Source: Candidatus Acetothermia bacterium | GTDB taxonomy: Bacteria > Bipolaricaulota > Bipolaricaulia > RBG-16-55-9 > JANLFV01 | DNA length: 58,065 bases | Assembly: GCA_024653345.1 (NCBI GenBank) | Contig: JANLFV010000009.1 | Span: 1-58,065, forward strand | Direction: 5' to 3' | In this document: positions 2,769 to 57,066 of the stretch, in pieces | Position numbering within the stretch: position 1 is the stretch's first letter | Layout: each line of letters begins with the position of its first letter | The notes under the pieces: model-generated | Seen by the model: only the letters and a program-made list of their open reading frames with translations | Databases searched by the model: none | What the model was told of the DNA's origin: nothing | Program-made: the position numbers and the translations under genes

Positions 2769-2797
2769 TTGTTTCCTCCCGTCCTCGGGGTTAAGGT
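2769..2797 (+). promoter_or_regulatory. Promoter giving near-leaderless Nudix transcript
   Basis: TTGTTT (2769-2774), 17-base spacer, TAAGGT (2792-2797). A start at about 2804 leaves only 3 nt before the ATG at 2807. Confidence 0.5.
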
Positions 2798-2806
2798 TGG
2801 GAGACC

Positions 2807-3451
2807 ATGGAGCGCTACTACTACATCGAGACGGACGGGATGGTCTACCTCGTCGAGGAGGGAGGGAGGCTCCGCTTCCCCCGGACGACCGAGGGATTGG
2901 GGTTCGAGGTCGAGGTGAAGTGGCCGATGGTCGTCGCGGGGAAGGAGGTCCTCTTCTCCAAGCCGCGGATCGACTACTACCCTGAGGACTGGTGGCCGAA
3001 GGACGAGATCCCCTCGCTGGACCGGGCCGACCCGCTCGTTCGCCAGGCGGTCCACCTCTCCCTCCCCCGGATCGTGGCCGAGGGGGTGATCGTCGAGGAG
3101 GGGAAGATCCTGCTGGTCAAGGCCAGCCGCGGCTTTCTCAAGGACCAGTGGAACCTCCCCGGGGGGTTCGTCGGCTACGGGGAGTCGCCCCCGGAGGCCG
3201 TGGCCCGCGAGGTGGCCGAGGAGGTCGGGGCCCCCTGCCGGGTCGGGCGGCTCCTGGGGGTAGAGAGCTTCATCGGGAAGAAGAGCTGCTTGCACTGGCA
3301 CATGTTCTTCTACGAGGTCGAGCTCGCCGGACGGGAGTTCCATCCCGCGGCGGACGAGATCCTCGAGGTCCGCTGGTTCCCCATCGCTCAGGCGGTCGAG
3401 CTCCTCGGCGATCGCGTCATGAGCCGGAAAATAAGGGAGTTGTTTGCCTAA
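2807..3451 (+). CDS. NUDIX hydrolase with N-terminal extension
   Basis: Hydrolase of a nucleoside-diphosphate-linked substrate. The Nudix box is complete at residues 120-142: G120, E126, R134, E135, E138, E139 and G141 occupy the catalytic positions, and the preceding WNLPGG is canonical. About 85 residues precede the Nudix fold. They contain a small beta-rich region (residues 1-60, many aromatic residues and the DYYPEDWW patch) that I do not recognise; it is too long for a simple ADP-ribose pyrophosphatase N-terminus. The substrate cannot be named. It is probably a single-gene unit with its own promoter in the 45-base gap after trkH. Confidence 0.88.
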   Translation: MERYYYIETDGMVYLVEEGGRLRFPRTTEGLGFEVEVKWPMVVAGKEVLFSKPRIDYYPEDWWPKDEIPSLDRADPLVRQAVHLSLPRIVAEGVIVEEGKILLVKASRGFLKDQWNLPGGFVGYGESPPEAVAREVAEEVGAPCRVGRLLGVESFIGKKSCLHWHMFFYEVELAGREFHPAADEILEVRWFPIAQAVELLGDRVMSRKIRELFA

Positions 3452-3568
3452 GCCCGCGGTCCAGGGCGTTCCTGCTCTTGTCCAGCCTGATTCAACGCTT
3501 TCCCGGCCGGAATTCACCCTCTCGCCCGATCCACAAGGGCCGCCCGATCCGCGAAACTAGCGTGAACG

Positions 3569-3940
3569 ATGGGCGGTCAGGTATCGGCCTTACCGAGAGA
3601 CCTGGGCTCAGGCGTAGGTCGCATCTTAGGGGACACCTACCGCCGGCGGCTCGAGGCGAGCTTGCGGAGCTTCACCACCATCGATGGCTCCCACACCCCT
3701 CTGGTGCGGATGGTCGCTTACCATCTCGGCTTCGAGGACAAGAAGGGGGCGAGGCTCGCGGCCTATCCCGGGAAGCTCCTCCGGCCTTCCCTCTTGCTCT
3801 TTATCTATGAAGTCCTCGGGGGCGAGCCCGAGGCGGCTCTCCCCGCGGCGGTGGCGCTCGAGCTGGTCCACAGCTTCTCATTGGCCCACGACGATATCCA
3901 AGACCGGGACGAGGAGCGGCATGGCCGGCCGACGGCCTGA
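3569..3940 (+). pseudogene. Truncated polyprenyl diphosphate synthetase (5' fragment)
   Basis: The 123-residue frame matches the N-terminal third of a trans-isoprenyl diphosphate synthase: GKLLRPSLLL corresponds to the GGKRLRP region, and the first aspartate-rich motif DDIQDRDEERHGRPT is present. The frame then ends (TGA at 3938-3940) exactly where the family continues with (V/L)W. The second aspartate motif, the Lys/Thr/Gln substrate residues and the C-terminal helices are all missing, so it cannot be an active synthase. From about 3955 the downstream DNA encodes the end of a histidine kinase in another frame, so the truncation is a deletion or rearrangement joint, or an assembly join. Two intact prenyl synthetases occur at 30436-31404 and 31944-32783. 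Confidence 0.85.
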
Positions 3941-3954
3941 GCCCGAGCCCAGGC

Positions 3955-4071
3955 CGAGGCCTCGGCCTGTGGGGCCTGCAAGAGCGGGCCCTCCTCGCCG
4001 GCGGCTCGGTCCGGATCGAGTCCCGGGCCGGGAGCGGGACGAGGGTGATCCTCGAGCTCCCAATAGAATGA
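3955..4071 (+). pseudogene. 3' remnant of a NarL-type sensor histidine kinase
   Basis: In the frame starting at 3955 the DNA reads GLGLWGLQERALLAGG, then SVRIES, then AGSGTRVILELP, then a stop. This is the G2/G3 end of a HATPase_c domain of HisKA_3/NarL-family kinases (typically GLGLxGMxERAxxLGG...PGxGTxVxxxLP). About 35 codons remain, without a start, H-box or N-box. The stop overlaps the start of the response regulator gene by 4 bases (ATGA, 4068-4071), the usual coupling of such kinase-regulator pairs. The rest of the kinase has been lost at the junction with the polyprenyl synthetase fragment. Confidence 0.82.
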
Positions 4072-4763
4072 TCCGCCTCCTCTTGGCCGACGACCATCGC
4101 TTGGTCCGGGAGGGCCTGCGGGCCCTCCTCGAGCGGGCGGGGTTCGAGGTCGTGGCCGAGGCCGGCGACGGCTATCAGGCCGTAGAGTTGGCCGCAAGCC
4201 TCAGGCCTGAGGTGGCGGTCCTCGACCTCGCCATGCCGGGCCTGAACGGCCTGGAGGCGCTCGAGAGGCTCCGGCAGGCCAGCCCCAAGACCAAGGTCTT
4301 GATCCTCTCGATGTTCGACGATGAGCTTTACATCCTGAGGGCCGCGCGGGCCGGCGCGGCCGGCTACCTCTTGAAGGACGGCTCATCTGAAGAGCTCCGC
4401 GAGGCCATCGACTCGGTCTGCAACTCCGACCGGTTCTACCTTGGCCGAGGGATCACCAGCGAGCGGCTCCGCCGCCTGGTCGCGAACGCGAAGGAGGGGC
4501 CGAGGCAGGAGGCCGAGTTCCTCACCGCGCGTGAGCGGGAGGTCCTGGCCCTGATCGCCCGCGGGCTCTCGACTGATGAGATCGCCCGAAAGCTCGGGCT
4601 CAGCCCGAAGACGATCGCGGCCCACCGGGCGAAGCTGAGGGCCAAGCTCGGGGTTCACACCCCTGCGGGCTTGGCGAGGTATGCGCTGCTCAAGCTCGCG
4701 GGCCCTGGGGCTGAATCTCCGGCCCCACAAGGCGGCGGTGATGGCCGTCGTCGCTTAAGATGA
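4068..4763 (+). CDS. NarL/LuxR-family two-component response regulator
   Basis: Receiver plus helix-turn-helix transcription factor, 231 aa. The receiver (1-120) has the acidic pair ADDH, phospho-acceptor Asp in VLDLAMPG, the Ser/Thr position in LILSMF and the Lys in LLKDG. The LuxR-type domain (about 150-210) begins LTAREREVLALIARG and contains the DNA-recognition helix in LGLSPKTIAAHRAKL. The start overlaps the kinase remnant's stop. With the kinase gene broken, this regulator is an orphan unless another kinase serves it. The last ~20 residues (Pro/Gly/Arg-rich) lie beyond the normal domain end and are read through 74 bases that also encode the C-terminus of the opposite-strand kinase gene. 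Targets unknown. Confidence 0.93.
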   Translation: MIRLLLADDHRLVREGLRALLERAGFEVVAEAGDGYQAVELAASLRPEVAVLDLAMPGLNGLEALERLRQASPKTKVLILSMFDDELYILRAARAGAAGYLLKDGSSEELREAIDSVCNSDRFYLGRGITSERLRRLVANAKEGPRQEAEFLTAREREVLALIARGLSTDEIARKLGLSPKTIAAHRAKLRAKLGVHTPAGLARYALLKLAGPGAESPAPQGGGDGRRRLR

Positions 4764-5673: not shown

Positions 5674-5721
5674 GCATGAGCCCAGCCAGCCAGAAAGAGC
5701 GGGGGCAGCTCAAGCTTTAAG

Positions 5722-6357
5722 CTAAGCGACCCCGCGGATGATGTCCTTGATCCGGAGGAGCTGGGCCCGCGAGGAGCGCTCCATCTCGTCGAGGGCCATG
5801 TAGATGAACCGGATATTCTGCTCGAGCTGGGGGATCAGGATCTGCTCCAGGGCGTTGACCCGGCGGCGGGTCGTCTCGATCTCCTCGGCCAGGAGCTCCA
5901 TCGCCTTCTCGATCTCCGCCAGCTTGATCAGCTCGGGGAGGGCCCCCGCGAAGGCCGCGAGGGCTCGATCGAGCTCGGCCGAGGTGGTGGCAAACCCGTA
6001 AGCATAGGGCTCGCGGCTATCCTGGAGGGCGAACCGCGGGACCTGGACATTCATGACGCTGTCCATCCTCACGGCGAGGAGCGAGCCCTCGCGGCTGTCC
6101 CCGCCGGTCATGAGGGCCTCGTAGAGGCCCTCCTTGGCCATCTCCGCCCGGGCCAGAAGGAAGCTCCGGAAGCCGCTTGCCAGGGCTTCCTCGACCCGCT
6201 CCCGCAGGCCACGGCTCTCCTCCACGAGCTCCATGAACCGGTGCATCAGCTCATCCCGCTTCTGCTTCAGCAGGCGATGGCCCCGCTGGGCCATCGCCAG
6301 CCTCTTCTTCTGCCGCAGGAGCTCCATCCGGGTCACATTCACTCGGACTTCCGCCAT
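5722..6357 (-). CDS. atpD: V/A-type ATPase subunit D (central stalk)
   Basis: Rotor shaft subunit inside the A3B3 headpiece. The 211-aa sequence starts with the signature VNVTRMELLRQKKRLAMAQRGHRLLKQKRDEL and is long antiparallel helical coiled coil at both ends. The C-terminal helix carries TRRRVNALEQILIPQLEQNIRFI, diagnostic of the family. It is the last structural gene of the ATPase cluster, starting 7 bases after the stop of subunit B. Length is normal for bacterial/archaeal subunit D. Confidence 0.97.
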   Translation of the reverse strand: MAEVRVNVTRMELLRQKKRLAMAQRGHRLLKQKRDELMHRFMELVEESRGLRERVEEALASGFRSFLLARAEMAKEGLYEALMTGGDSREGSLLAVRMDSVMNVQVPRFALQDSREPYAYGFATTSAELDRALAAFAGALPELIKLAEIEKAMELLAEEIETTRRRVNALEQILIPQLEQNIRFIYMALDEMERSSRAQLLRIKDIIRGVA

Positions 6358-6364
6358 CGCGCGC

Positions 6365-14672: not shown

Positions 14673-15239
14673 TTAGACGGTCAGGATCTGCTTCTCCTTG
14701 TCAGTGATCAGCTCGTCGATCTTCGTCGTATACTCATGGGTGATCTCGTTCAGTTCCTCCAAGCGGCTGTAGAGCTCGTCCTCGGGGAGCTTCCCCTCCT
14801 TCTCCATCTTCTCCAGGGCCTCCTTTGTATCCCGGCGGATGTTCCGGATCGCCACCTTCGCCTCCTCGCCCCGCTCCTTGACGAGCTTCACCAGCTCCCG
14901 CCGCCGCTCCTCGGAGAGCTTGGGGATCTTGATCCGGACGAGCGCCTCCTCCGCTTGAGGGTTGAGGCCGAGGTTCGCCTCCAGGATCCCCCGCTTGATC
15001 GCCTCCTTCTGCGTGGGGTCATAGGGCCTGACGACCAGTTGGTCCGGGTCGGGGGCGGTGATCGTCGCCAGGTGCTTCAGCGGGGTCGGGACCCCGTAGT
15101 AGTTGATCTTCACATCCTCGATGAGCGCGGGGTTGGCCCGACCGGTCCGGATCCGCCGGAGGTCCTCCTCGAGGATCTCTAAGCTCTTCTTCATCCGTTC
15201 CCGCATCTCTTGAACCTGCTTCTCGGCCATCATGACCAC
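14673..15239 (-). CDS. frr: Ribosome recycling factor
   Basis: Splits post-termination 70S ribosomes together with EF-G. The ~185-aa protein has the family hallmarks EDLRRIRTGRANPALIEDVKINYYG, PTPLKHLATITAPDPDQLVV, IRIKIPKLSEERRRELVKLVKERGEEAKVAIRNIRRD and the C-terminal KIDELITDKEKQIL. Candidate starts are GTG at 15239 and ATGs at 15233 and 15230; the last gives the most typical N-terminus (MAEKQVQEMRERM). The promoter lies directly against these codons, so the message is leaderless or nearly so. It is the first gene of the V-ATPase operon, an unusual position for frr, which more often follows pyrH. Confidence 0.96.
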   Translation of the reverse strand: MVMMAEKQVQEMRERMKKSLEILEEDLRRIRTGRANPALIEDVKINYYGVPTPLKHLATITAPDPDQLVVRPYDPTQKEAIKRGILEANLGLNPQAEEALVRIKIPKLSEERRRELVKLVKERGEEAKVAIRNIRRDTKEALEKMEKEGKLPEDELYSRLEELNEITHEYTTKIDELITDKEKQILTV

Positions 15240-15247
15240 CGCGGGGG

Positions 15248-15276
15248 ATTATAGTTCTGTTGAGCTCCCAAATCAA
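15248..15276 (-). promoter_or_regulatory. Promoter for frr and the V-ATPase operon
   Basis: On the minus strand, TTGATT (15276-15271), 17-base spacer, TATAAT (15253-15248). Predicted start is near 15241, 2 nt before the GTG and 8-11 nt before the ATGs. Confidence 0.7.
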
Positions 15277-18094: not shown

Positions 18095-19273
18095 TCAGTT
18101 GAGGTAGACCCGCCCGACCCGCTTGGAGATCTGGGTGAGGATCACCTCCACGCAGGGTGCGCCGCACCGCTCGGCCAGCTCGGTTGCGGGGAGGTGCTCG
18201 CCGAAGAGCTCGACCTCTTCCCCCGCGGCCACGCCCCGGAGATGGGTGACATCGACCGTCGCCTGGTCCATGGAGATCCGTCCGACGATCGGCGCGCGCC
18301 TCCCGCAGATCACGACCTCGCCGCGGTTGGAGAGCCGGCTGTCGAGCCCATCGGCGTAGCCGACCGGGATGATCGCGATCCGCGAAGGCCGTGGGGTCCG
18401 ATAGCTCCGCCCGTAGCCGATGTAGGCCCCGCGGGGGATCGCCCGCGTCGCTACCACCCAAGTTCGAAGCGACATGACGGGCCTGATGAGGGAAGTCCAG
18501 CCAGCCTCCAGCTCGGGGTAGCCGTAGAGGAGGACCCCCGGGCGGACCATGTTGAAGTAGCCGCTCGTCACCTCGTCGAAATAGCCGATGAGCCCGGCGG
18601 AGTTCGAGATGTGCCGCTGCGGGGGGAGGAGGCCGGCGCGATCCAATCTTTCGAGAGCATCGTGGAACCGCTCGATCTGGACCAGGGTATACTCTCGATC
18701 CTCCGGGCGAGGGCTGGTGGCCACGCTGAGGTGGCTGAAGACGCCCTCGACCTGGAGGCGCTTGAACTGCCTCAGGCTCCTGAAGAAGGAGAGGACCTCT
18801 TCGGCCATCACCCCGATCCGACCCAGGCCGGTGTCGACCTTCACCTGGACCTTCGGCCTGGTCCCGAGCCTTGTGGCCTCGCGGTCTAGGGCCCGCGCGA
18901 AGTCGAGCCCGGCGATCGTAATGGCAATCTCGAGTTCGCCCAGCTGGGCGAGGATCGGGAGGTGGTGGGGATGGGAGAGGCCGAGGACTAGGATCGGGAG
19001 TCCAACACCGGCGCGCCTGAGCTGGAGCGCCTCCTCGAGGTTGGCCACTCCAAGGGCGTCGACGCCGGCGGCTTGGGCCTTGAGCGCGACCGGCCCCGCG
19101 CCGTGGCCGTAGGCGTCGGCCTTGACGACGAAGAGAAGCCGCGCTTCACCGGCGAGTTTCTCCTTGACGATGCCGATGTTCCGCTCGAGGCGAGAGAGGT
19201 CGACCCTCGCCTCGGCCATCGCCAGCTGGCCGACTCGCTCCCCGATCCGCGTGAGGGTGCCCAGCTCGATCAT
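18095..19273 (-). CDS. alr: Alanine racemase
   Basis: PLP enzyme that makes D-alanine for peptidoglycan, 392 aa. The PLP-binding lysine motif is FVVKADAYGHGAGPVA near residue 50. Also seen are VKVDTGLGRIGV, GVFSHLSVA, HISNSAGLI, MVRPGVLLYGYPE and the catalytic Tyr in YIGYGRSYR. SMDQATVDVT near the C-terminus is also canonical. About 18 residues precede the usual start (ARVDLSRLERNI); an internal Met at residue 19 (MAEAR) would give the standard N-terminus, but the promoter fits the ATG at 19273. Confidence 0.95.
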   Translation of the reverse strand: MIELGTLTRIGERVGQLAMAEARVDLSRLERNIGIVKEKLAGEARLLFVVKADAYGHGAGPVALKAQAAGVDALGVANLEEALQLRRAGVGLPILVLGLSHPHHLPILAQLGELEIAITIAGLDFARALDREATRLGTRPKVQVKVDTGLGRIGVMAEEVLSFFRSLRQFKRLQVEGVFSHLSVATSPRPEDREYTLVQIERFHDALERLDRAGLLPPQRHISNSAGLIGYFDEVTSGYFNMVRPGVLLYGYPELEAGWTSLIRPVMSLRTWVVATRAIPRGAYIGYGRSYRTPRPSRIAIIPVGYADGLDSRLSNRGEVVICGRRAPIVGRISMDQATVDVTHLRGVAAGEEVELFGEHLPATELAERCGAPCVEVILTQISKRVGRVYLN

Positions 19274-19281
19274 TACGCCTC

Positions 19282-19310
19282 ATGGTAGGGCTGCCCTGTC
19301 TATCGGATAA
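19282..19310 (-). promoter_or_regulatory. Possible near-leaderless promoter of alr
   Basis: Minus strand TTATCC (19310-19305), 17-base spacer, TACCAT (19287-19282). Predicted start is near 19275, 2 nt before the ATG at 19273. The -35 match is weak. Confidence 0.4.
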
Positions 19311-19359: not shown

Positions 19360-19388
19360 TTGTCCTCAGCGCCGGGCGGGAGTATGCT
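19360..19388 (+). promoter_or_regulatory. Promoter of the DUF192 gene, near-leaderless
   Basis: TTGTCC (19360-19365), 17-base spacer, TATGCT (19383-19388). A start near 19395 leaves 4 nt before the ATG at 19399 and excludes the upstream in-frame ATG at 19384, which lies inside the -10 box. Confidence 0.55.
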
Positions 19389-19398
19389 ATCCCCCGAG

Positions 19399-19989
19399 AT
19401 GCGGGGGAGGATCTTCTCCGCCTGGCCGGTCGTGCTAGCGCTCGCCGCCGCGGGGATGCTCGCGTGGTGGCTCGTCCCCGCGCTGCGCGGGGATTACAGG
19501 ACGACGCCGGAGTTCCGGAAGATGGGGTTGGCCAAGCTCGCGGTCCTCACAGCCACCGGCCAGGAGATGAGGCTTACCGTGCGCGTGGCTGATGAGCAGG
19601 ACGAGCAACTGGCCGGGTTCCAGCACATCGGGCGGAGGGTGATGGCCCGGAGCCTCATCCTCTTCGTCTTCCTCCGCGAGTTCTCCGGGATGTTCCACAT
19701 GCGGAATGTGGTCGGACCGCTGGACATCGCCTTCGCGAAGGCCGACGGCAAGATCTTCTCCATCATGCGGATGGACCCCGGCTCGAAGCTCTACGGCCCA
19801 GACGGGCCGTTCCAGTATGCCCTCGAGGCCCCGGCAGGCTTCTTCGCGAAGAAGGGGATCACGGTCGGGGCGAAGCTGGTCCTCCCGATGGGTCAGTCCT
19901 CTCTCGGGCCTGGGGCCTTCCCGGCGAGGGCCGCCTGGGCCGCGGCCAGCCGGGCGATCGGGACACGGAAGGGCGAGCAGCTCACATAA
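19399..19989 (+). CDS. DUF192 family protein, membrane-anchored
   Basis: Residues 1-25 hold one hydrophobic segment (WPVVLALAAAGMLAWWLV) that is probably a signal anchor. The rest is the DUF192 fold: LTVRVADEQDEQLAGFQHIG, then the MFHMRNVVGPLDIAFAKADGKI core and an ending KKGITVGAKLVLP. The function of the family is unknown. The natural family end is at VLP (about 19889). The further ~32 codons run antisense through the end of ppdK, so the C-terminal tail is unlikely to matter or the gene has lost its original stop. The start is set by the promoter position. Confidence 0.82.
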   Translation: MRGRIFSAWPVVLALAAAGMLAWWLVPALRGDYRTTPEFRKMGLAKLAVLTATGQEMRLTVRVADEQDEQLAGFQHIGRRVMARSLILFVFLREFSGMFHMRNVVGPLDIAFAKADGKIFSIMRMDPGSKLYGPDGPFQYALEAPAGFFAKKGITVGAKLVLPMGQSSLGPGAFPARAAWAAASRAIGTRKGEQLT

Positions 19990-31433: not shown

Positions 31434-31874
31434 TCACTCCCGCTCTAGAATCAGCGTCACCGGCCCATCGTTCGCCAGCTCGACGAGCATGTGGGCCTGG
31501 AAAACCCCCTGCGCCACGGTGAGCCCGCTCCTCCTCAGCTCCTCGACGAACTGCCCGAAGAGAGGCTCCGCTACCTCCGGAGGGGCTGCGGCCTCGAAGC
31601 TGGGCCGGCGGCCCTTGCGCGCATCGCCGTAGAGGGTGAACTGGGGCACGGCTAGGATCTCCCCGCCGACCTCGAGCAACGCTCGGTTCATCTGCCCCTG
31701 CTTGTCCTCGAAGATCCGCAAGTTGACCACCTTGTTTGCCATCCAGCGGAGCTGCTCCGGCCCGTCGCCCCGGCCGATGCCGACCAGCAGCAACAGCCCC
31801 CGCCCGATCCGGCCAACGATCTGCTCGCCCACAGCGACCCGGGCCCGGGCTACCCGCTGAACAACGACCCTCAT
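31434..31874 (-). CDS. dtd: D-aminoacyl-tRNA deacylase
   Basis: Removes D-amino acids mischarged on tRNA, 146 aa. MRVVVQRVARARVAV, GLLLLVGIGRGD, NKVVNLRIFED, FTLYGDARKGRRPSF and the C-terminal NDGPVTLILE cover the whole family length. The usual SQxxT motif reads PQFT (77-80), so the conserved Ser77 is Pro, while Gln78 and Thr80 are kept. It is the first gene of the long glycolytic operon and is transcribed divergently from the prenyl synthetase at 31944. Confidence 0.95.
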   Translation of the reverse strand: MRVVVQRVARARVAVGEQIVGRIGRGLLLLVGIGRGDGPEQLRWMANKVVNLRIFEDKQGQMNRALLEVGGEILAVPQFTLYGDARKGRRPSFEAAAPPEVAEPLFGQFVEELRRSGLTVAQGVFQAHMLVELANDGPVTLILERE

Positions 31875-31883
31875 CTCCAGGGG

Positions 31884-31913
31884 ATTCTAGCCCGGGCGCG
31901 AACGCCGTTGCAA
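31884..31913 (-). promoter_or_regulatory. Promoter of the dtd to ppdK operon
   Basis: Minus strand TTGCAA (31913-31908), 18-base spacer, TAGAAT (31889-31884). Predicted start is near 31877, 3 nt before the dtd ATG. The palindromic -35 box is the same six bases used by the opposite promoter. Confidence 0.6.
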
Positions 31914-31937
31914 CTGCCGAAGGCCCGTCCCTATAAT
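31908..31937 (+). promoter_or_regulatory. Promoter of the prenyl synthetase gene, leaderless
   Basis: TTGCAA (31908-31913), 18-base spacer, TATAAT (31932-31937). The expected start at 31944 is the first base of the GTG start codon (an ATG follows at 31947). Confidence 0.65.
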
Positions 31938-31943
31938 TGAACC

Positions 31944-32783
31944 GTGATGGTCGAGGAATACCTGGCAGCCAGGCGGGAGATGGTCGAGAGCTATCTGGAG
32001 GCCTACCTGAAGGCGAGGGCCAGAGAACTCCCCCAGACACTCCACCAGGCGATCGCCTATGCCCTGGAGGGGGGGAAGCGGCTCCGGCCGATCCTGGTCC
32101 TGGCCGCGGCTGAGGCCCTCGGCGGCGATGCTGAGGAGGTCCTCCCCACGGCCGGGGCGTTCGAGCTGTTCCATACCTATTCGCTGATCCACGACGATCT
32201 TCCCGCCCTGGACGACGCCGATCTGCGCCGGGACCAGCTCACTGTCCACCGGGTCTTCGGCGAGGCGGCGGCCCTGCTGGCCGGGGATGCCCTGATCCCG
32301 CTGGGATTCGAGCTGATCGCCAAGGAGCAGGCCAGGATCTCCCCCGAGGACCGCGTCCTGCGCGTGATCGGCCTGGTGAGCGAGGCCCTCGGCCCTGCGG
32401 GGATGGTCGGGGGCCAACTGCTGGAGCTCGAGGAGCGCTTCGCCGACCCCGAGGCGCTGGAGGAGATCTACTCGAAGAAGACGGCCGCCCTCCTCGGGGC
32501 CGCGACCGCCGCGGGGGCGGTCCTCACCGGCGGCGGGGAAGGTGAAGTGACAGCCCTGCACCGGTTTGGCCTCTGCCTTGGCCTGGCCTACCAGTTGATC
32601 GACGACCTTCTCGACCTGGGGGAGGATGAGGGGCCGACCTATGTCCACCTAGTCGGGGAGCGGGAGGGCCGGGAGGAGGCCGAGCGGCTGACCGGAGAGG
32701 CCCTTCAGGCGCTCGCGTCGCTGGGGAACGGCGCGGCGAACCTGCGCGCACTCGCCAGGTGGCTCCTCTCGAGGAGGAGCTGA
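31944..32783 (+). CDS. Short-chain polyprenyl diphosphate synthase (FPP/GGPP type)
   Basis: Prenyltransferase, 279 aa. EGGKRLRPILVLAAAEALGG binds IPP. The first motif DDLPALDDADLRRDQLTVH has the two-residue insertion (DDxxxxD) of bacterial IspA-type FPP/GGPP synthases. KKTAALLGAATAAGA and YQLIDDLLDLGED follow. It likely makes C15 or C20 precursors that the long-chain enzyme at 30436 extends. Translation from GTG 31944 or ATG 31947 is leaderless by promoter position. Its stop overlaps the start of the next gene by one base (TGATG). Confidence 0.93.
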   Translation: MMVEEYLAARREMVESYLEAYLKARARELPQTLHQAIAYALEGGKRLRPILVLAAAEALGGDAEEVLPTAGAFELFHTYSLIHDDLPALDDADLRRDQLTVHRVFGEAAALLAGDALIPLGFELIAKEQARISPEDRVLRVIGLVSEALGPAGMVGGQLLELEERFADPEALEEIYSKKTAALLGAATAAGAVLTGGGEGEVTALHRFGLCLGLAYQLIDDLLDLGEDEGPTYVHLVGEREGREEAERLTGEALQALASLGNGAANLRALARWLLSRRS

Positions 32784-33761: not shown

Positions 33762-33790
33762 TTTATAACATGGGGTGCAGAACTTGTCAA
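33762..33790 (-). promoter_or_regulatory. Promoter of the tRNA-rnh unit
   Basis: Minus strand TTGACA (33790-33785), 17-base spacer, TATAAA (33767-33762), a near-consensus promoter. Predicted start is near 33755, 11 nt before the tRNA 5' end. Its -35 box overlaps that of the divergent permease promoter. Confidence 0.75.
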
Positions 33791-33814
33791 GGTCCTTCCG
33801 GCTCGGACTATAAT
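33784..33814 (+). promoter_or_regulatory. Promoter of the first permease pair, leaderless
   Basis: TTGTCA (33784-33789), 19-base spacer, TATAAT (33809-33814). The predicted start at 33821 is one base before the ATG at 33822. Confidence 0.6.
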
Positions 33815-33821
33815 GGCCGCG

Positions 33822-34811
33822 ATGACCCTGGCAAAGATTGGCCGCTTGGGGACGCTAGTTCGCGCGAGAGCGGTGTTCTGGCGTCGCCGGTTCAGATACA
33901 ACTGGAGCTTATACAAGCAGGACCCGTTGGGCGTTGTGGGTCTGGGAATTCTGGGGCTGTTCCTCGTGCTGGCCCTCCTCCATCCCCTCTTGCTCGCGAC
34001 CGTCTGGGACCGCGAGGTCTACGACCCGATCAACGGCTACTCACTCGACGAGCTGCGTCCGCCCCCTGCCTCGCCGTCGCTCCGCCACCTCTTGGGGACG
34101 GACATCCAGGGGCGGGACATCCTAAGCCAGCTCCTCTACTCCATCCGGATGGAGCTGCTCCTCGCGGTCCTCGCGGCGGTGGTCACCGTGATCCTCGGCA
34201 CGGGGATGGGCGTGGTCGCGGCCTACTTCAGCGGGCGGGCCGTTGACCTGGCGCTCATGCGGGCGGCGGACCTCTTCCTCGTCCTCCCACCGGTCGCGTT
34301 CATCCTCTTCCTCGGGACGCTCGTCCGGCTCAACATCCCCCTCCTCGCGCTCCTCATCGGGGCGATCGGCGGCGGGAAGGTCGCGGTGATCATGAAGTCC
34401 CGCGCCCTGGAGGTGACCGTCAAGCCCTATGTCCAAGCAGCAAGGGTGGTCGGCGGCGGGAGCTTCCATGTGATCCGAAAGCACATCGTCCCCAATGTCA
34501 TCCCCTACATCTTCCTGTTCATGATGCTGAGCTCGGTGATCGCTGTCCTGGCCGAGGCCCTCCTCTCCTACTACGGCGGGGACTTCTTCATGGGGCGATA
34601 CCGCACCGGCCCGACCGGGTTCCTCCAGATGAGCTGGGGCCTCATGCTCTATCTTGCCTACCACATGGGGTATTTCATGGGAGACAACCTCATCAGATAC
34701 TGGTGGCTCTCCTTCCCTGCCGGCCTGGCGGTGACATTGCTCGCCTCAGCGTTCTACCTCGTCGGTAGAGGATTCAACCAGATTGCCAACCCCCGCCTGG
34801 GGGCGAGATGA
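33822..34811 (+). CDS. ABC transporter permease, DppC/OppC type
   Basis: Inner-membrane permease of a peptide/nickel-type (family 5) importer, 329 aa with about six membrane segments. One N-terminal helix is followed by a ~60-residue external loop ending LGTDIQGRDILSQLLYS, the DppC signature. The ABC-coupling EAA region reads VQAARVVGGGSFHVIRKHIVPNVIPY. I chose the ATG at 33822 from promoter position; in-frame codons at 33756 and 33813 would lie upstream of or inside the -10 box. The next gene overlaps by 4 bases. No binding protein or ATPase follows, so it may borrow the ATPases at 44446-46437 (inference). Confidence 0.92.
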   Translation: MTLAKIGRLGTLVRARAVFWRRRFRYNWSLYKQDPLGVVGLGILGLFLVLALLHPLLLATVWDREVYDPINGYSLDELRPPPASPSLRHLLGTDIQGRDILSQLLYSIRMELLLAVLAAVVTVILGTGMGVVAAYFSGRAVDLALMRAADLFLVLPPVAFILFLGTLVRLNIPLLALLIGAIGGGKVAVIMKSRALEVTVKPYVQAARVVGGGSFHVIRKHIVPNVIPYIFLFMMLSSVIAVLAEALLSYYGGDFFMGRYRTGPTGFLQMSWGLMLYLAYHMGYFMGDNLIRYWWLSFPAGLAVTLLASAFYLVGRGFNQIANPRLGAR

Positions 34812-37491: not shown

Positions 37492-37562
37492 GAGGAGTTT
37501 GCGCTAAAACCTGGAGAGCCTATCCGTTTCCAAAATCTACGAAAGGGAGGTAGTATAGGGAA

Positions 37563-38633
37563 ATGAAGAAGGCTAATCTGATCAAGCTGATCTTGGTGGT
37601 CTCCTTACTGGCGGGGCTCGTCTGGAGCGCCTACAGCGTGACGCTCGTAAAGGCGATCAAGTCCACTCCGGCAGGCATCGGGGCCTATGACATCGAGGAC
37701 ATGCAGATGTGCGCGGACGGGAAGACCGCAATCATGGTCGCGGTCGCCAGAAACGACGATGCCCGAGTCTATTGGTATGACCTCGCAAACGACAAGGTCG
37801 CGGGTTACTGCCGCGTCGGCATCCTCTACGGCCCGCGCGGTGACCGGGGGATCGGGATCAACCCGCAGTGCACCTACGCCTATCTCGCCAACTACCCGAT
37901 CGACAGCGTCAGCACCATCGATCTTGCCGCCAGCCCGAGGGATGGGAAATACTGCGTGATGACAGAGACCGCTGTCGCCCCGAAGCCCAACGGGGATATC
38001 GGCCTCAACTATCCTGAGTGGCACAATGTGATGGTCGCCAGCTCTTTCTCCGATGTGATCACCATTCTCAACACCCAGGGCAAGGTGATCGACGAGATCG
38101 AGATGGGGTTCGGCCCGGACGGGGTGCTTGCTCTAGGGAAGCAGTGGGCAGCCGTGCCGAACCGCTACGATGACACGCTCTATGTCATCGATCTTCCCAG
38201 GCTCGAGGTCTACACGACCGTCACGGGGCTGAGCCGCGTCCCGGACACCGCCTGCCTCGACCCCGCAGGGCAGTATGTCTACGGGATCAACTTCGTTGAC
38301 AACAGCGTGGACGTGATCAAGACAGGCTCCTGGAATGTGGTGAAGCGGATCCCGGTGGGGCAGAGCCCGCGCTACTGCGCGATGGGCCCTGACGGGAAGT
38401 TCCTCTATGTCTCGAACACCACCGACAAGACGGTGAGCGTCATCGATACCGCCACCAAGCGCGTGGTGGAGACGATCGTGGCCGCTGGGCCGACCGAGCC
38501 GGCCGCGATCAAGTGGCTGGCTGTGACGAACGACAATCGCTACCTCTATGTCTACTACCCCGGCGGGCGCTCTGGGACCTACGCAGACTTCACCATCCTG
38601 AAGTTCGATGTCGGCCAGCTCTACGGAGGATAG
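37563..38633 (+). CDS. Secreted YVTN-type beta-propeller protein
   Basis: Exported 356-aa protein with a signal peptide (LIKLILVVSLLAGLVWSAYS). Repeats of about 42 residues of the form (P)DGK-hydrophobic-YVSN...VSVIDTATKRVVETI are clear in the C-terminal half: DPAGQYVYGINFVDNSVDVIKTGSWNVVKRIPVG, then GPDGKFLYVSNTTDKTVSVIDT. Weaker copies fill the N-terminal half. This is the YVTN/surface-layer beta-propeller fold; the biochemical role is unknown. Strong promoter, long leader and a strong terminator suggest high expression as a monocistronic message. Confidence 0.88.
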   Translation: MKKANLIKLILVVSLLAGLVWSAYSVTLVKAIKSTPAGIGAYDIEDMQMCADGKTAIMVAVARNDDARVYWYDLANDKVAGYCRVGILYGPRGDRGIGINPQCTYAYLANYPIDSVSTIDLAASPRDGKYCVMTETAVAPKPNGDIGLNYPEWHNVMVASSFSDVITILNTQGKVIDEIEMGFGPDGVLALGKQWAAVPNRYDDTLYVIDLPRLEVYTTVTGLSRVPDTACLDPAGQYVYGINFVDNSVDVIKTGSWNVVKRIPVGQSPRYCAMGPDGKFLYVSNTTDKTVSVIDTATKRVVETIVAAGPTEPAAIKWLAVTNDNRYLYVYYPGGRSGTYADFTILKFDVGQLYGG

Positions 38634-39877: not shown

Positions 39878-39954
39878 GGGAGCTGGGGAGAGCCTGGAGT
39901 CAAGCGGAGCAAAACACATCGCGAAGAGCGAATCTCGAAAGGAGGAGTTAGAAG

Positions 39955-42033
39955 ATGGGTTTCAAGGTTAAGCTAGGTTTGGTAGCAGTTCTGGCGCTCG
40001 CGCTCGGTCTGTTGGTGGCGGTGACGGCCGTCCCCCAGGGGGGCGGGCGGGTCTACCGCATGGGGTTCCACGAGGACATGACTACCACGAGCTACATGAA
40101 CTACGTGGGCCCAGGGTCCACCGTCTGGAACGCCTATGTCCTGGGGAACATGCACCCCTCGCTCTACGGGCTGAGTGATGTCACCTTCCAGCCGATCCTC
40201 TCGCTGGCCGAGGACTATGCCACACCCGTTGCTCGCGAGGGCGGGTTCTACACCTCCAGCATCTGCATCAGCCCCGGGAACACCTGGAGCGACGGGACCG
40301 AGATCACGGCTGAGGACATTGCCTTCACTCTCAACGGGATCCTCGAGCTGGACCCGATCGCCCTCGGTGGGAACTGGCCCTACAGCGTCGACCCCGATTT
40401 GTTCGATCACATGGACGTGACGAGCAAGTACTGCGTCAAGTTCTACCTCAAGGACAAGCCGGGGCTATCCCGCTGGGAGTATGGGATGCTCGGTGCCCCG
40501 ATCCTCCAGAAGGCCTTCTGGGGGCCGAAGTTCGAGGCCGCGCTGGCGAGCGCTGACCCCGTGGCCACGATCTATGCCGACCCCGGCCAGCCCGAGCCGA
40601 GCGCGACCTCGTGGGTCTTCGAGAAGTGGGAGCCTGGTGCCTATGCCGAGCTCGTGCGGAGCTACACCAACGCCCCGACCGAGCTCGAGGGCATGAGCCG
40701 GCTGCTGGAGTGCGAGGGCGGGTTCTACGGAACCGCCAGCGTCGGTTCGGTCTTTGGCGGTGGCTATCGCGGGAGCCTCTACGCCGTGGCCTCGAACGCC
40801 ACCGAGTATGGCACGATCAAGGGACTGGAGTCACAGCTCAAGGCCGACACGAGCTACTACAAGTATAACGACGCGAACCTCGCCCTGATCGTCCGCACGA
40901 ACACCTCCAACGACTACAATGCCCTCTGGAACGCCGTGAGCGGGAAGCTGAGCGAGATCGAGAGCGCGATCGGCTGCAACAAGACCCTCGACTTCGCCCC
41001 CGGCCCCTATGTGGACGCCGTGGTCTACAAGCTCTACGGGACGCTCGCCGCGGGCGCGCTGGCCCTCATCTCCGGGGAGATCGACTTCCAGCTCAACCCC
41101 TTGGGCTATGAGCTCGGTCTCCGCCGGCAACTCGAGGCCGCGCCGGGCGTGACGGTCTTCAGCAACCCGGACAACGGGATCTTCTACTTCAGCTTCAACC
41201 TCCGCCGGCCGCCGATGAACAACATCTACTTCCGCAAGGCGCTCGACTGCATGATCGATCGCGAGTATGTCACGACCGAGCTGCTCCAGGGCGTCGCCGA
41301 GGCGGCCTACTCCGTCGTCCCGCCGGGGAACGCCTACTGGTTCCGCCCGCCCTCAGAGGAGGAGAAGCAGGCCCGCTGCATCGGCTTCTCTGCGGCGGCC
41401 AAGCTGAAGAAGGCCGTGGAGTATCTGGAGATGGGCGGCTTCACCTGGCAGGTGAAGCCGGAGGTCCTGCCTGATGGCACGATCAAGGCCGGGCGAGGGA
41501 TCAAGCTCGACGGCCAGCTCGTCCCTGAAATCGAGTATATCCACCCGAACGCGGCTTACGACAACCGGCGGAACATCTTCGGGCTCCACGTCTCCAAGGC
41601 CGCGAACACCTTGGGTATCCCGCTGCGGAATGTCCCGACCGGGTTCAATGTCATCGTCAGCCGCGTCTTCGACGAGCAGGACTTCGACATGTGGTCCCTC
41701 GGTTGGTCGCTCGGGATCTATCCGGACTATCTGGAGGGGTTCTTCCACTCCCAGTATGCCGAGCTTGGTGGGCAGAACGCGCAGGGCTACTCTAACCCCG
41801 AGTTCGACGCTCTGGCCGAGGCCTTCGTCCTGGAGCAGGACATCGTGAAGGCCCGCGAGCTGGCCTTGCAGATGCAGGCGTTCCTCGCGGACGAGCTTCC
41901 CTATGTCCCGCTCTTCTACGCCCCGACCTACGAGGCCTATCGCTCTGACTTCATCCAGTTCCCTTACACTCAGGTCTTGGCCGGCGTCTCTGATATGAAC
42001 GGCATGATCAGCTACGTCAAGCTGATCCGCTAG
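39955..42033 (+). CDS. ABC transporter substrate-binding protein, family 5
   Basis: Exported solute-binding protein of a peptide/oligosaccharide importer, 692 aa, longer than the usual 520-600. Signal peptide: MGFKVKLGLVAVLALALGLLVAV, no lipobox seen. Typical SBP_bac_5 features are GNTWSDGTEITAEDIAFTLNG, FRKALDCMIDREYVTTELLQG and the C-terminal LGWSLGIYPDYLEGFFHS...YSNPEFDALAE...LADELPYVPLFY. Extra length lies in the middle (about 230-340, Ser/Tyr/Asn-rich). Substrate unknown. A terminator follows at once, and the permease operon has its own promoter, a layout that allows excess binding protein. Confidence 0.93.
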   Translation: MGFKVKLGLVAVLALALGLLVAVTAVPQGGGRVYRMGFHEDMTTTSYMNYVGPGSTVWNAYVLGNMHPSLYGLSDVTFQPILSLAEDYATPVAREGGFYTSSICISPGNTWSDGTEITAEDIAFTLNGILELDPIALGGNWPYSVDPDLFDHMDVTSKYCVKFYLKDKPGLSRWEYGMLGAPILQKAFWGPKFEAALASADPVATIYADPGQPEPSATSWVFEKWEPGAYAELVRSYTNAPTELEGMSRLLECEGGFYGTASVGSVFGGGYRGSLYAVASNATEYGTIKGLESQLKADTSYYKYNDANLALIVRTNTSNDYNALWNAVSGKLSEIESAIGCNKTLDFAPGPYVDAVVYKLYGTLAAGALALISGEIDFQLNPLGYELGLRRQLEAAPGVTVFSNPDNGIFYFSFNLRRPPMNNIYFRKALDCMIDREYVTTELLQGVAEAAYSVVPPGNAYWFRPPSEEEKQARCIGFSAAAKLKKAVEYLEMGGFTWQVKPEVLPDGTIKAGRGIKLDGQLVPEIEYIHPNAAYDNRRNIFGLHVSKAANTLGIPLRNVPTGFNVIVSRVFDEQDFDMWSLGWSLGIYPDYLEGFFHSQYAELGGQNAQGYSNPEFDALAEAFVLEQDIVKARELALQMQAFLADELPYVPLFYAPTYEAYRSDFIQFPYTQVLAGVSDMNGMISYVKLIR

Positions 42034-47410: not shown

Positions 47411-48871
47411 CTAGCCCTTGACCACCGCCATCGGCCGGAGGCGGGCGACCTTCTGGTTGATCCCGGAGTTGTGGGCCGCGGCGGCGACGACCTCGATGTC
47501 CTTGTAGGCCCCTGGGGCCTCCTCGGCCAGCCCGGCCAGCGAGTGGCCCCGGACGATGATCCCCTGCCGCTTCAGCTCCTCCCGCAATTGCTCGCCGCGG
47601 AACTGCTTCTTCGCTTTCTCCCGGGACATCTCCCTCCCCGCGCCGTGGATCCCACTCCCGAAGGTCTCCCGCAGCCCCTTCTCCGTCCCACGCATGATGT
47701 AGCTGGAGGTCCCCATCGTCCCGCCGATGAAGATCGGGTGGCCTACATCCCTGTATTTCGGGGGGTTCTCCTCCCGCCCGGGGCCGAAGGCCCGCGTCGA
47801 GCCCTTCCGGTGCACGAGCAACCGCTTCCGGGAGCCGTCAACTTCGTGGACCTCGAACTTGGCGGTGTTGTGCCCGACATCGTAGAGCAGCTTGATCTCC
47901 TCGAGCTTGAGGCCGAAGACTGCGGCGAAGGTCTTCCGGACGAGGTGGGCCAAGGTCTGGCGGTTGGCGAAGGCGCAGTTGATCCCGCAGTTCACCGCGG
48001 AGATGTAGCGCTCCCCTTCGGGGCTCTCGATCGGGGCGCAGACCAGTTCCCGCTCCCGGATCGGGATCCCGTATTTCTTGCTCGCCCGCTCGAGCTCCTG
48101 CAGATAGTCCTGGCCGATCTGGTGGCCCAAGGCGCGCGAGCCGCAGTGGATGGCCACGAGGACCTGGTCCTTCTCCAGGCCATAGGCCCGCGCCGCGACC
48201 TCATCGTATATTTCCTCAACATACTGGACCTCGAGGTAGTGGTTCCCCGAGCCGAGGGTCCCGACCTGCTTGAACTGGCGCTCCTTGGCCTGGTCGCTCA
48301 CGGTCCCCGGGTCGCAGCCGGCGATCCGCCCCCGCTCCTCGGTGTATTCTAGATCCTCGGGGAAGCCGTAGCCGCGGGCGAGGGCGAACTCCGCCCCCTG
48401 CATGAGCACTTGGTCGATCTCCTTCATCGAGAGCTTCAGCTCGCCGGTCGAGCCGAGCCCCGCGGGGATCTCGCGGAAGAGCCGGTCGGCCAGCTGCTCT
48501 TTCCTTGCTTCTATGTCATGTCTTTTCAGTGGAGTGCGCAATGTCCTAACACCACAGTTGATGTCAAAACCGATCCCGCCCATGGCGATGACCCCGCCCT
48601 CCTTGGGGTCGAAGGCCCCGACCCCGCCGATGGGGAAGCCGTAGCCGGGGTGGATGTCGGGCATGGCGAGCGAGGCCTTGACGATCCCGGGAAGGCAGGC
48701 GACATTGTGGACTTGGAGCAGGGCGTTCCACTCCTTGGCCGCGCCGCTCTCCTTCAGGAGGTGGTCGATGATCCGCTGGTCCCCGTAGATCCTCCCGGGG
48801 ACCCGCATCTCGCCCTGCTTAGGCAACTCCCAGACATAATCGGAGATCTTCTTCAGTTCAAGCTCAGCCAT
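47411..48871 (-). CDS. rtcB: RtcB RNA 3'-phosphate/5'-OH ligase
   Basis: Mn2+/GTP-dependent RNA ligase that joins 2',3'-cyclic phosphate or 3'-phosphate to 5'-OH ends, 486 aa, full length. MPDIHPGYGFPIGGVGAF, the metal site GGIGFDINCGVRTLRT, GTLGSGNHYLEVQYV, AIHCGSRALGHQIG, the GGTMGTSSYIM loop and HGAGREMSREKA (nucleotidyl-His region) are all present. It lies downstream of archease with a 92-base gap holding a possible own promoter, and it ends the pyrB-led gene run. Confidence 0.97.
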   Translation of the reverse strand: MAELELKKISDYVWELPKQGEMRVPGRIYGDQRIIDHLLKESGAAKEWNALLQVHNVACLPGIVKASLAMPDIHPGYGFPIGGVGAFDPKEGGVIAMGGIGFDINCGVRTLRTPLKRHDIEARKEQLADRLFREIPAGLGSTGELKLSMKEIDQVLMQGAEFALARGYGFPEDLEYTEERGRIAGCDPGTVSDQAKERQFKQVGTLGSGNHYLEVQYVEEIYDEVAARAYGLEKDQVLVAIHCGSRALGHQIGQDYLQELERASKKYGIPIRERELVCAPIESPEGERYISAVNCGINCAFANRQTLAHLVRKTFAAVFGLKLEEIKLLYDVGHNTAKFEVHEVDGSRKRLLVHRKGSTRAFGPGREENPPKYRDVGHPIFIGGTMGTSSYIMRGTEKGLRETFGSGIHGAGREMSREKAKKQFRGEQLREELKRQGIIVRGHSLAGLAEEAPGAYKDIEVVAAAAHNSGINQKVARLRPMAVVKG

Positions 48872-48880
48872 AGCATTATC

Positions 48881-48910
48881 AGTTTATCGGAAGGCGGGAG
48901 CAGGGTGCAA
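48881..48910 (-). promoter_or_regulatory. Possible near-leaderless promoter of rtcB
   Basis: Minus strand TTGCAC (48910-48905), 18-base spacer, TAAACT (48886-48881); start near 48874, 3 nt before the ATG. GATAAT closer to the gene cannot serve as a -10 at normal spacing to the ATG. Confidence 0.4.
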
Positions 48911-49957: not shown

Positions 49958-51338
<1,381 letters not shown>

Positions 51339-52548: not shown

Positions 52549-52567
52549 CTTCCCTCCATTTGCTTAA

Positions 52568-52596: not shown

Positions 52597-52608
52597 GACC
52601 TCGATGGC

Positions 52609-54987: not shown

Positions 54988-55343
54988 CGCTTGGGCAACA
55001 CCACCTTCAGCAGCCCCTGGCGGTATTGAGCCTTGATCTTGTCCTTGGCGATCGGGCCGGGGAAACAGATCGCCCGCTGGAATAGGCCGTGTCTGATCTC
55101 CATCTGATGGTAGCGGACACGAGAGGCCTCCAGCTCATTCCTTCGCTCCCCGCGGATCGTCAGTATCCCTTCCATGAAGCTGATCCTGATCTCCTCGCGC
55201 TCCATCCCCGGAAGCTCCATGCGCACGATGAACTCCTCTTCAGTCTCATAGACATCGGTCGGAGGAAGCCAGTCCGGCTTCGGGCCGAAGGAGCCTTGCA
55301 GCCCGATCTCCTGCTGCAGCGAGAAGACATACCTCGATCCCAT
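54984..55343 (-). CDS. Small heat shock protein Hsp20
   Basis: Alpha-crystallin domain holdase chaperone, 119 aa. WLPPTDVYETEEEFIVRMELPGMEREEIRISFMEGILTIRGERR is the core, and the end FQRAICFPGPIAKDKIKAQYRQGLLKVVLPKR carries the conserved GLL..LPK motif. I chose the ATG at 55343 because the predicted transcription start (about 55356) lies downstream of the in-frame ATG at 55364. Operon with lon. Confidence 0.93.
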   Translation of the reverse strand: MGSRYVFSLQQEIGLQGSFGPKPDWLPPTDVYETEEEFIVRMELPGMEREEIRISFMEGILTIRGERRNELEASRVRYHQMEIRHGLFQRAICFPGPIAKDKIKAQYRQGLLKVVLPKR

Positions 55344-55362
55344 TGCCTCGTCTCTCGGATTC

Positions 55363-55391
55363 ATTCTACATACCAGGGCTTTGCTCGGCAA
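55363..55391 (-). promoter_or_regulatory. Promoter of hsp20-lon
   Basis: Minus strand TTGCCG (55391-55386), 17-base spacer, TAGAAT (55368-55363), leader about 13 nt. No CIRCE-type inverted repeat seen. Confidence 0.5.
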
Positions 55392-55483
55392 CCGGGCTCG
55401 GCTTCCGCGCCTGGTCCGGCCGGGAAGCCAGGCAGAATCGGCCGTGGGGCGCTTGGAATGTGAGCGTGCGAACTCGAGCGGGC

Positions 55484-55876
55484 CTACCGCGGGGCCTGGG
55501 AGAAGAGCGTGGCGAAGATCTGTTGGATGATCTTCTCCCAACGCGCCGTATCGATCTTGATCAGGGTGAGCTCGTTGCTCTCCCAGCGGTATTGCTCTAG
55601 CCCTTCGACCCGCCGGAGCCGGGCCTCAATCTGGGCCCTGAAGCTCTCGTCGAAGTTGAGACCGGCATTCAGGATCCCGATGACATCGTCGTTCTTGTAG
55701 CGCTTGACCAGCACATCGGTCCCCTCATAGGGGACCTTCACGAGGATCTCGCCGTCCATGCCGAACCCCAACTGGTCGTAGCTCTGGGACCGGCCGAACT
55801 TCATTCCCCCTAGAAAAGCGAGGAGGAGCAGAACCGCGATCGCTCCCACGCTCAAGAAAAGCCTGTTCATCTCCAT
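55484..55876 (-). CDS. Hypothetical membrane-anchored protein, 130 aa
   Basis: N-terminal hydrophobic segment (FLSVGAIAVLLLLAFLGGM) then a ~105-residue soluble domain with DGEILVKVPYEGTDVLVKRYKND near the start and a Glu/Arg-rich second half. It is probably held in the membrane with the domain outside. No family recognised. GAGGGGAG lies before the ATG (a second ATG at 55870 is possible). Own strong promoter; the stop is about 90 bases before the hsp20 promoter. Confidence 0.65.
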   Translation of the reverse strand: MEMNRLFLSVGAIAVLLLLAFLGGMKFGRSQSYDQLGFGMDGEILVKVPYEGTDVLVKRYKNDDVIGILNAGLNFDESFRAQIEARLRRVEGLEQYRWESNELTLIKIDTARWEKIIQQIFATLFSQAPR

Positions 55877-55897
55877 CTCCCCTCTCGTCTCGCCCCA

Positions 55898-55925
55898 ATT
55901 ATATCGCCTCCGCCGGGGGAGTCAA
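55898..55925 (-). promoter_or_regulatory. Promoter of the 130-aa membrane protein gene
   Basis: Minus strand TTGACT (55925-55920), 16-base spacer, TATAAT (55903-55898); leader about 15 nt. Confidence 0.7.
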
Positions 55926-55951
55926 GCTCGACCTGAACATGGCCTGCGGGC

Positions 55952-55980
55952 TTGCACTTTGAGCTCGCCCCGGGTTAAAT
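55952..55980 (+). promoter_or_regulatory. Promoter of prfA, near-leaderless
   Basis: TTGCAC (55952-55957), 17-base spacer, TTAAAT (55975-55980). Start near 55987, 3 nt before the ATG at 55990. Confidence 0.5.
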
Positions 55981-55989
55981 AGTGCCGGC

Positions 55990-57066
55990 ATGGGCATCCT
56001 GGAGAGGCTGGCCGAGGCTGAGGAAGAGCTCCGCGCCCTAGAAGCCGAGCTGGGGAACACGGCCCTGGCTGGGACGCGTCGCTATGCCGAGCTCTCGCAA
56101 CGCTATGCTCGGCTGCGCGAGCTGGTCGATCATTATACCCGGCTGAAGGCGTTGGAGAGGGAGATGGCGGAGGCCGAGGAGATGCTCGCGACGGAGGCAG
56201 ATCCAGAGCTCCGGGAGCTGATTGCCGAGGAGCTCCGGGAGTATCGGGAGCGGCACGAGCGCCTCCAGGAGGAGATCCAGGCCCTGCTAGTGCCCGAGGA
56301 TGCCCGGGACCTGCGGAACGCGATCGTCGAGATCCGGGCCGGTGCGGGAGGCGAGGAGTCGGCCCTCTTCGCCGCCGACCTCTTCCGCATGTATCAGAAG
56401 TATGCCGAGAGGAAGGGGCTGAAGATCGATGTGATGGACTCTCATCCCACGCCGCTTCTCGGGTTCAAGAGCATCATCTTCGCCGTCGAGGGCCGGGGGG
56501 CCTATGGCCTATTCAAGTTCGAGAGCGGGGTCCATCGCGTCCAGCGGGTCCCGGTGACCGAGGCCTCAGGGCGGATCCATACCTCGACCGCCTCCGTGGC
56601 CGTCCTCCCCGAGACCGAGGAGGTCGAGCTGGAGATCGATGAGGAGGAGCTGGAGATCGAGACGTTCCGCTCCTCCGGCCCGGGGGGCCAACATGCCAAC
56701 CGGACCGAGTCGGCCGTCCGGATCACGCATAAGCCGACCGGGCTGGTCGTGACCTGTCAGGACGCCCGCTCCCAGCACAAGAACAAGGAGAAGGCCCTCA
56801 AGATCCTCCGCGCCCGGCTCAAGGAGCGGCTGGAGGAGGAGAAGGCCGAGGAGCTCACCTCCGAGCGGCGGTCCCAGATCGGCCGAGCGATGCGGAGCGA
56901 GAAGGTCCGGACCTACAACTTCCCCCAGAATCGGGTGACCGACCACCGGATCGACCTCACCCTCTACCAGCTCGAGGAGATCCTAGCGGGGGACCTCGAC
57001 CCGCTCGTCTCTGCACTCGCCAAGGCCGAGCGGGAGGAGCGGCTGGCGGCCGTCCTGGCCCGCTGA
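55990..57066 (+). CDS. prfA: Peptide chain release factor 1
   Basis: Recognises UAA/UAG stop codons, 358 aa. The N-terminal helical domain is followed by VEIRAGAGGEESALFAADLFRMYQKYAERKG and the catalytic GGQ loop SGPGGQHANRTESAVRITHKPTGLVV. The end TYNFPQNRVTDHRIDLTLYQLEEILAGDLDPLV is typical of RF1. The residue before GGQ is Pro (usually Ala), and Val-Asn after it is Ala-Asn, small departures. I assign RF1, not RF2, from length and the C-terminal pattern. It converges on the S74 gene with 4 bases between. Confidence 0.93.
   Translation: MGILERLAEAEEELRALEAELGNTALAGTRRYAELSQRYARLRELVDHYTRLKALEREMAEAEEMLATEADPELRELIAEELREYRERHERLQEEIQALLVPEDARDLRNAIVEIRAGAGGEESALFAADLFRMYQKYAERKGLKIDVMDSHPTPLLGFKSIIFAVEGRGAYGLFKFESGVHRVQRVPVTEASGRIHTSTASVAVLPETEEVELEIDEEELEIETFRSSGPGGQHANRTESAVRITHKPTGLVVTCQDARSQHKNKEKALKILRARLKERLEEEKAEELTSERRSQIGRAMRSEKVRTYNFPQNRVTDHRIDLTLYQLEEILAGDLDPLVSALAKAEREERLAAVLAR

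What the first reader, a model, noticed from the sequence alone, without database searches (positions are those of the whole stretch)
2769..55992. Widespread leaderless or near-leaderless promoters (TANNNT box against the start codon)
At nine places a -35/-10 pair with 17-19 base spacing puts the expected transcription start 0-5 nt before a start codon: Nudix (2807), alr (19273), DUF192 (19399), dtd (31874), prenyl synthetase (31944), dppC-like (33822), rtcB (48871), pyrB (51321, -10 only) and prfA (55990). frr (15239) is similar. Long-leader genes with strong Shine-Dalgarno sites (37563, 39955) are the exported, probably abundant proteins. A two-class translation-initiation layout is known in Deinococcus and Actinobacteria; I do not know of it for the lineage suggested here.
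Basis: partly seen in the sequence, partly recalled or inferred. Interest (0 to 1): 0.75.

Follow-up and report, generated by a model that had tools for sequence, protein, structure and literature searches.

The report
Promoters set against start codons
In this uncultured bacterium (phylum Bipolaricaulota) about a quarter of the recognisable gene-proximal promoters sit so close to the start codon that the messenger RNA must begin at or within a few bases of it, without the usual ribosome-binding site; this start-up mode is known from other bacteria, but I found no report of it for this phylum.

Summary
The window is from a Bipolaricaulota (Acetothermia) MAG. In 1.46 Mb of its 1.71-Mb genome, 68 TTG-N19..21-TANNNT promoters end 5-10 nt before the start of genes that are not operon-internal; block shuffles give 1.1. 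None end at 0-4 nt, few at 11-15 nt, and a second class lies at 16-60 nt. The close class lacks Shine-Dalgarno sites (1%); the distant class (67-73%) and operon-internal genes (63%) have them. Without gene calling, the pattern with N9 before ATG gives 28 hits against 1 reversed and 3 for N13. Most families of the phylum show the same; family f8 does not. At prfA the geometry is kept across several families, while f7 has TANNNT-6-GTG and f8 an SD leader. The 16S 3' end carries an ordinary anti-SD. The inferred 5' leader is 0-4 nt, modally 3 (spacer 9), unlike the spacer 6 of Deinococcus. No 5' ends were mapped. This is the known bacterial leaderless (TA-led) mode in a phylum with no report found: a new member of a known kind.

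The parts
2769..2809 (+). Nudix gene: TTGTTT (2769-2774), 17, TAAGGT (2792-2797), 9, ATG 2807
   Evidence: also a strict whole-genome pattern hit
15237..15276 (-). frr: TTGATT, 17, TATAAT (15253-15248), 8, GTG 15239
   Evidence: strict set
19271..19310 (-). alr: TTATCC (weak -35), 17, TACCAT (19287-19282), 8, ATG 19273
19360..19401 (+). DUF192 gene: TTGTCC, 17, TATGCT (19383-19388), 10, ATG 19399
   Evidence: strict set
31872..31913 (-). dtd: TTGCAA (31913-31908), 18, TAGAAT (31889-31884), 9, ATG 31874; Pfam PF02580 aligns from residue 2, which supports this start
31908..31946 (+). prenyl synthetase: TTGCAA (31908-31913, the same hexamer as the dtd -35), 18, TATAAT (31932-31937), 6, GTG 31944 (or 9, ATG 31947)
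31884..31937 (.). Divergent dtd/prenyl promoter pair with one shared palindromic -35 (GTTGCAAC), both -10s 18 bp away
   Evidence: counterpart next to the prenyl synthetase gene of the same-genus genome G001
33784..33824 (+). dppC-like permease: TTGTCA, 19, TATAAT (33809-33814), 7, ATG 33822
48869..48910 (-). rtcB: TTGCAC, 18, TAAACT (48886-48881), 9, ATG 48871
   Evidence: strict set
51319..51338 (-). pyrB: TATAAT (51338-51333), 11, ATG 51321; no recognisable -35; weakest of the set
55952..55992 (+). prfA: TTGCAC, 17, TTAAAT (55975-55980), 9, ATG 55990; geometry kept in relatives of several families
37527..37565 (+). Contrast: beta-propeller protein gene with SD (GGGAGG) before ATG 37563; the TAGTAT at spacer 6 has no good -35 and is probably chance
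39907..39957 (+). Contrast: SBP_bac_5 gene with strong SD (AGGAGG) before ATG 39955

Best explanation
These are housekeeping-sigma promoters (-35 TTGMNN, 17-18 bp, -10 TANNNT) placed so that RNA polymerase, starting about 7 nt after the -10 box, makes mRNAs whose start codon lies 0-4 nt from the 5' end (modally 3). Such mRNAs have no room for an SD site, so ribosomes most likely bind the 5'-terminal start codon directly, as in known leaderless initiation. The rest of the genome uses leaders with SD sites and an ordinary anti-SD. Shown: the geometry, its excess over chance, its near absence inside operons, the SD split, conservation at prfA. Inferred: the start point at +7 and the leaderless route of translation.
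For: 68 strict promoters at 5-10 nt vs 1.08 expected; 0 at 0-4 nt; 12 at 11-15 nt; 171 at 16-60 nt vs 9.2 expected. SD 1% in the close class vs 67-73% in the distant class and 63% in operon-internal genes. TTG lies at the right distance in 63% of TANNNT boxes near starts. Gene-caller-free: ATG 5-10 nt after two-box sites 101 vs 57 for permuted trinucleotides, P=1e-7, peak 30 at 9. Whole genome N9 28 vs 1 reversed; N13 3; N6 11 vs 0. prfA geometry kept across families. Purine share rises at +7 after the -10 in leadered promoters, which points to the start site. Anti-SD CACCTCCTTT present.
Against: No 5' ends are mapped. A purine at -3 is also common in leadered genes (76%), so the purine at +7 in spacer-9 genes does not prove the start site. 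Upstream promoters could give longer mRNAs for some of these genes. The bare TANNNT excess is modest (6% of first genes). Start codons come from my own simple gene caller.
Confidence: 0.87

Rival explanations
1. The hexamers are chance AT-rich words in upstream DNA of a G+C-rich genome.
For: TANNNT alone is common upstream: 38.7 expected of 63 observed; single sites such as pyrB (no -35) or TAGTAT before 37563 may be chance.
Against: Two-box sites exceed block shuffles about 60-fold; spacer 9 exceeds spacer 13 (28 vs 3) and the reversed pattern (28 vs 1) in the whole genome; SD exclusion; conservation at prfA.
Confidence: 0.02
2. The promoters are real but the start codons are wrong: translation begins at downstream in-frame codons, giving ordinary short leaders.
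For: The starts are computed, not measured; G+C-rich genomes have many alternative GTG/TTG starts.
Against: ATG itself is enriched at 9 nt without any gene calling; dtd starts exactly at the Pfam domain start; rtcB relatives align from residue 1; prfA orthologues keep -10 and ATG 8-11 nt apart.
Confidence: 0.06
3. The close promoters are secondary; the main mRNAs come from further upstream.
For: Not testable without RNA data; three operon-internal genes also have such boxes.
Against: SD sites are absent in this class (1%, less than the 10% of shuffled sequence), so longer mRNAs would have no SD either.
Confidence: 0.05

Closest known systems
Bacterial leaderless (TA-led) genes as defined by Zheng et al. 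2011 (PMC3160421)
   Same: TANNNT about 10 bp before the start in a G+C-rich genome, no SD, alongside SD-led genes.
   Different: Phylum not among those named in the passage read; strict share here about 5% of genes (27% of two-box promoters within 60 nt), below the ~20% and ~40% given for Actinobacteria and Deinococcus-Thermus.
'-10 region adjacent to ORF' of Deinococcus-Thermus (PMC12340547)
   Same: -10 box abutting the ORF; two upstream motifs (-10 and RBS) in one genome.
   Different: Deinococcus spacer 6-7; here mode 9 (Fisher P=0.002 against my D. deserti sample). Here a TTG -35 is usual (63%); in the D. deserti sample 0 of 19 had one.
Mycobacterial leaderless mRNAs (PMC4633059)
   Same: RTG starts at or near the 5' end, mixed with leadered genes.
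   Different: There the start codons are concentrated at +1; here the inferred mode is a 3-nt leader.

Membership tests
Bacterial leaderless (TA-led) genes | -10-like TANNNT about 10 bp upstream of the start, in excess of chance | tested here: met
Bacterial leaderless (TA-led) genes | No Shine-Dalgarno site at these genes, while other genes of the genome have it | tested here: met
   1% vs 67-73% and 63%; anti-SD present
Bacterial leaderless (TA-led) genes | Found at genes that begin transcription units, not inside operons | tested here: met
   68 sites in 700 genes that are not operon-internal, 3 in 563 operon-internal genes
Bacterial leaderless (TA-led) genes | mRNA 5' end at or within a few nt of the start codon | not testable with these tools
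   Inferred from the -10 position only
Bacterial leaderless (TA-led) genes | Translation initiates without SD pairing at the 5'-terminal codon | not testable with these tools
   Needs ribosome profiling or a reporter assay
Strictly leaderless layout as in Deinococcus (spacer 6-7) | Most -10 boxes 6-7 nt from the start codon | tested here: not met
   own 25 at 6-7 vs 58 at 8-10; D. deserti 12 vs 5; f7 relatives 20 vs 13

The most novel reading that the evidence does not exclude
In this order of Bipolaricaulota the dominant form is not strictly leaderless but a near-leaderless mRNA with a leader of about one triplet (5'-RNN-AUG), a distinct arrangement that its sister family f7 lacks, and in part delivered by divergent promoters that share one palindromic -35.
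Probability: 0.35. Interest if true: 0.5.

Novelty: new member of a known kind. Interest (0 to 1): 0.42.

Why it matters
It adds a phylum known almost only from metagenomes to the lineages with a two-class translation start, shows that the mode varies between families of one phylum (kept, shifted or absent), and gives a set of genes on which gain and loss of leaderless starts can be followed at single orthologues such as prfA. It also matters for annotation: gene finders that expect an SD site can misplace these starts.

Tried and rejected
Bare TANNNT in relatives G014, G003, G024 and G001 was not significant with small samples, although two-box tests were. In the same-genus comparison only four close-class genes had orthologues in the DNA held; two kept the geometry: too few. 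Purine at +7 in spacer-9 genes was considered as proof of the start site and dropped because purine at -3 is general. The idea that leadered genes are the exported ones was tested and not supported. No paper linking leaderless starts and this phylum was found; the library lacks most subscription journals and Lomsadze 2018, so absence of a report is not certain.

Full report
Source. The prfA protein of the window finds Candidatus Acetothermia/Bipolaricaulota MAGs as nearest relatives. The window is contig C31 of a 1.71-Mb, 92% complete genome, G000. I read 1.46 Mb of it in stretches and called genes with a codon-pair model that does not use upstream signals.

The ten sites. Spacers between the -10 hexamer and the start codon are 6-11 nt. 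Six pass a strict test (TTG, 19-21 nt, TANNNT, 5-10 nt, start). alr has a weak -35, dppC a 19-bp spacing, pyrB no -35, and prfA has TTAAAT instead of TANNNT. Gene names are confirmed by Pfam; dtd aligns to its Pfam family from residue 2, so its start is secure.

More than chance. TANNNT alone is in excess 5-10 nt before the first genes of transcription units: 63 vs 38.7; divergent genes 44 vs 21.5; operon-internal genes 11 vs 8.5. The test is sharper with both boxes. In 1.46 Mb, sites at 5-10 nt number 68 against 1.08 in block shuffles, at 0-4 nt none, at 11-15 nt 12, at 16-60 nt 171 against 9.2. A part of 0.4 Mb fetched after the first result gave 19 by itself. Without any gene calling, ATG is over-represented 5-10 nt after two-box sites (101 vs 57 for permuted trinucleotides, P=1e-7) with its peak (30) at 9. 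Over the whole genome the pattern TTG-N20-TANNNT-N9-ATG occurs 28 times against 1 for the reversed pattern; with N13 three times; with N6 eleven times against none. Controls: Deinococcus deserti plasmid 20 vs 4.7 with mode 6, Cupriavidus 4 vs 6.3.

Two classes. SD-like 4-mers precede 1% of the close class, less than in shuffled sequence (10%), but 67-73% of genes whose promoter lies 16-90 nt away and 63% of operon-internal genes. The 16S rRNA ends in GGATCACCTCCTTTCT, an ordinary anti-SD.

Where transcription starts. In leadered promoters the purine share rises from 0.37 at position +6 after the -10 to 0.65 at +7 and stays high, which fits a start at +7. With that, a spacer of 6 means no leader and 9 a leader of 3 nt. 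The mode in this genome is 9, in the f7 relatives and D. deserti 6-7 (Fisher P=0.003 and 0.002). The inference is limited: purine at -3 is common in leadered genes too.

Relatives. Counts for N9, reversed N9 and N13 by family (sums): f1 45/1/8, f3 106/7/36, f4 267/29/108, f6 111/14/56 and f7 46/8/20 show the peak; f2 27/2/20, f5 53/22/43 and f9 25/2/26 show promoters but little or no preference for 9 over 13; f8 77/68/74 shows nothing. Outside the phylum most genomes tested show no excess; two Chloroflexi do (32 vs 8, 16 vs 3), as do, less cleanly, an Acidobacteria MAG and the clostridium Yanshouia. At prfA the relatives G001, G003, G006, G008, G010, G012 and G013 keep TTGCA(A/T), 17 bp, TTAAAT or TTTAAT, 8-11 nt, ATG; most f7 genomes have TACNCT-6-GTG; f8 genomes have a leader of about 20 nt with GGAGG. 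One orthologue thus shows three states within a phylum.

What is known. Zheng et al. 2011 found TA-led genes in 207 of 953 bacterial genomes over some ten phyla; the StartLink paper cites 21.6% of bacterial species; Deinococcus-Thermus is well studied; mycobacterial starts concentrate at +1. I found no report for Bipolaricaulota in a library that lacks most subscription journals. The phenomenon is therefore a new member of a known kind, with a spacer preference of its own.

Side result. Two divergent near-leaderless pairs, dtd/prenyl synthetase in the window and one on C25, share a single palindromic -35, TTGCAA, with the -10 boxes 17-18 bp away on either side. The pattern occurs 34 times in the 19 genomes of the order (own included) against 6 for its reversal, and matching pairs in related genomes keep all three boxes almost unchanged while the spacers differ at about 20-45% of positions. 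Described E. coli bidirectional promoters share the -10 element instead.

Noticed in passing
window 31884-31937; own contig C25 25403-25455: Two divergent promoter pairs share one palindromic -35 (TTGCAA) with outward-facing -10 boxes 17-18 bp away; enriched in the order (34 vs 6 reversed) and kept in relatives while spacers diverge. Polymerase could probably use only one direction at a time. Whether this geometry has been described is unknown to me.
   Followed up: partly
window 3569-3940: Remnant of a polyprenyl synthetase: the frame ends just after the first aspartate-rich motif (HDDIQDRD), next to a LuxR-type response regulator gene in another frame.
   Followed up: partly
window 47411-48871: RtcB is 67-71% identical to family f7 genomes but only about 50% to most genomes of its own order, which suggests transfer or a retained paralogue.
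   Followed up: no
G041 and G050 (genomes of L030 and L045, Chloroflexi MAGs): Both are also enriched for TTG-N20-TANNNT-N9-ATG (32 vs 8 and 16 vs 3), with fewer at N6, so a 9-nt spacer may not be limited to Bipolaricaulota.
   Followed up: no
L144, L148, L149, L151 (family f8): These lower-G+C relatives lack the arrangement and have prfA with a leader of about 20 nt and a GGAGG-like site: a gain or loss of the mode within the phylum.
   Followed up: partly
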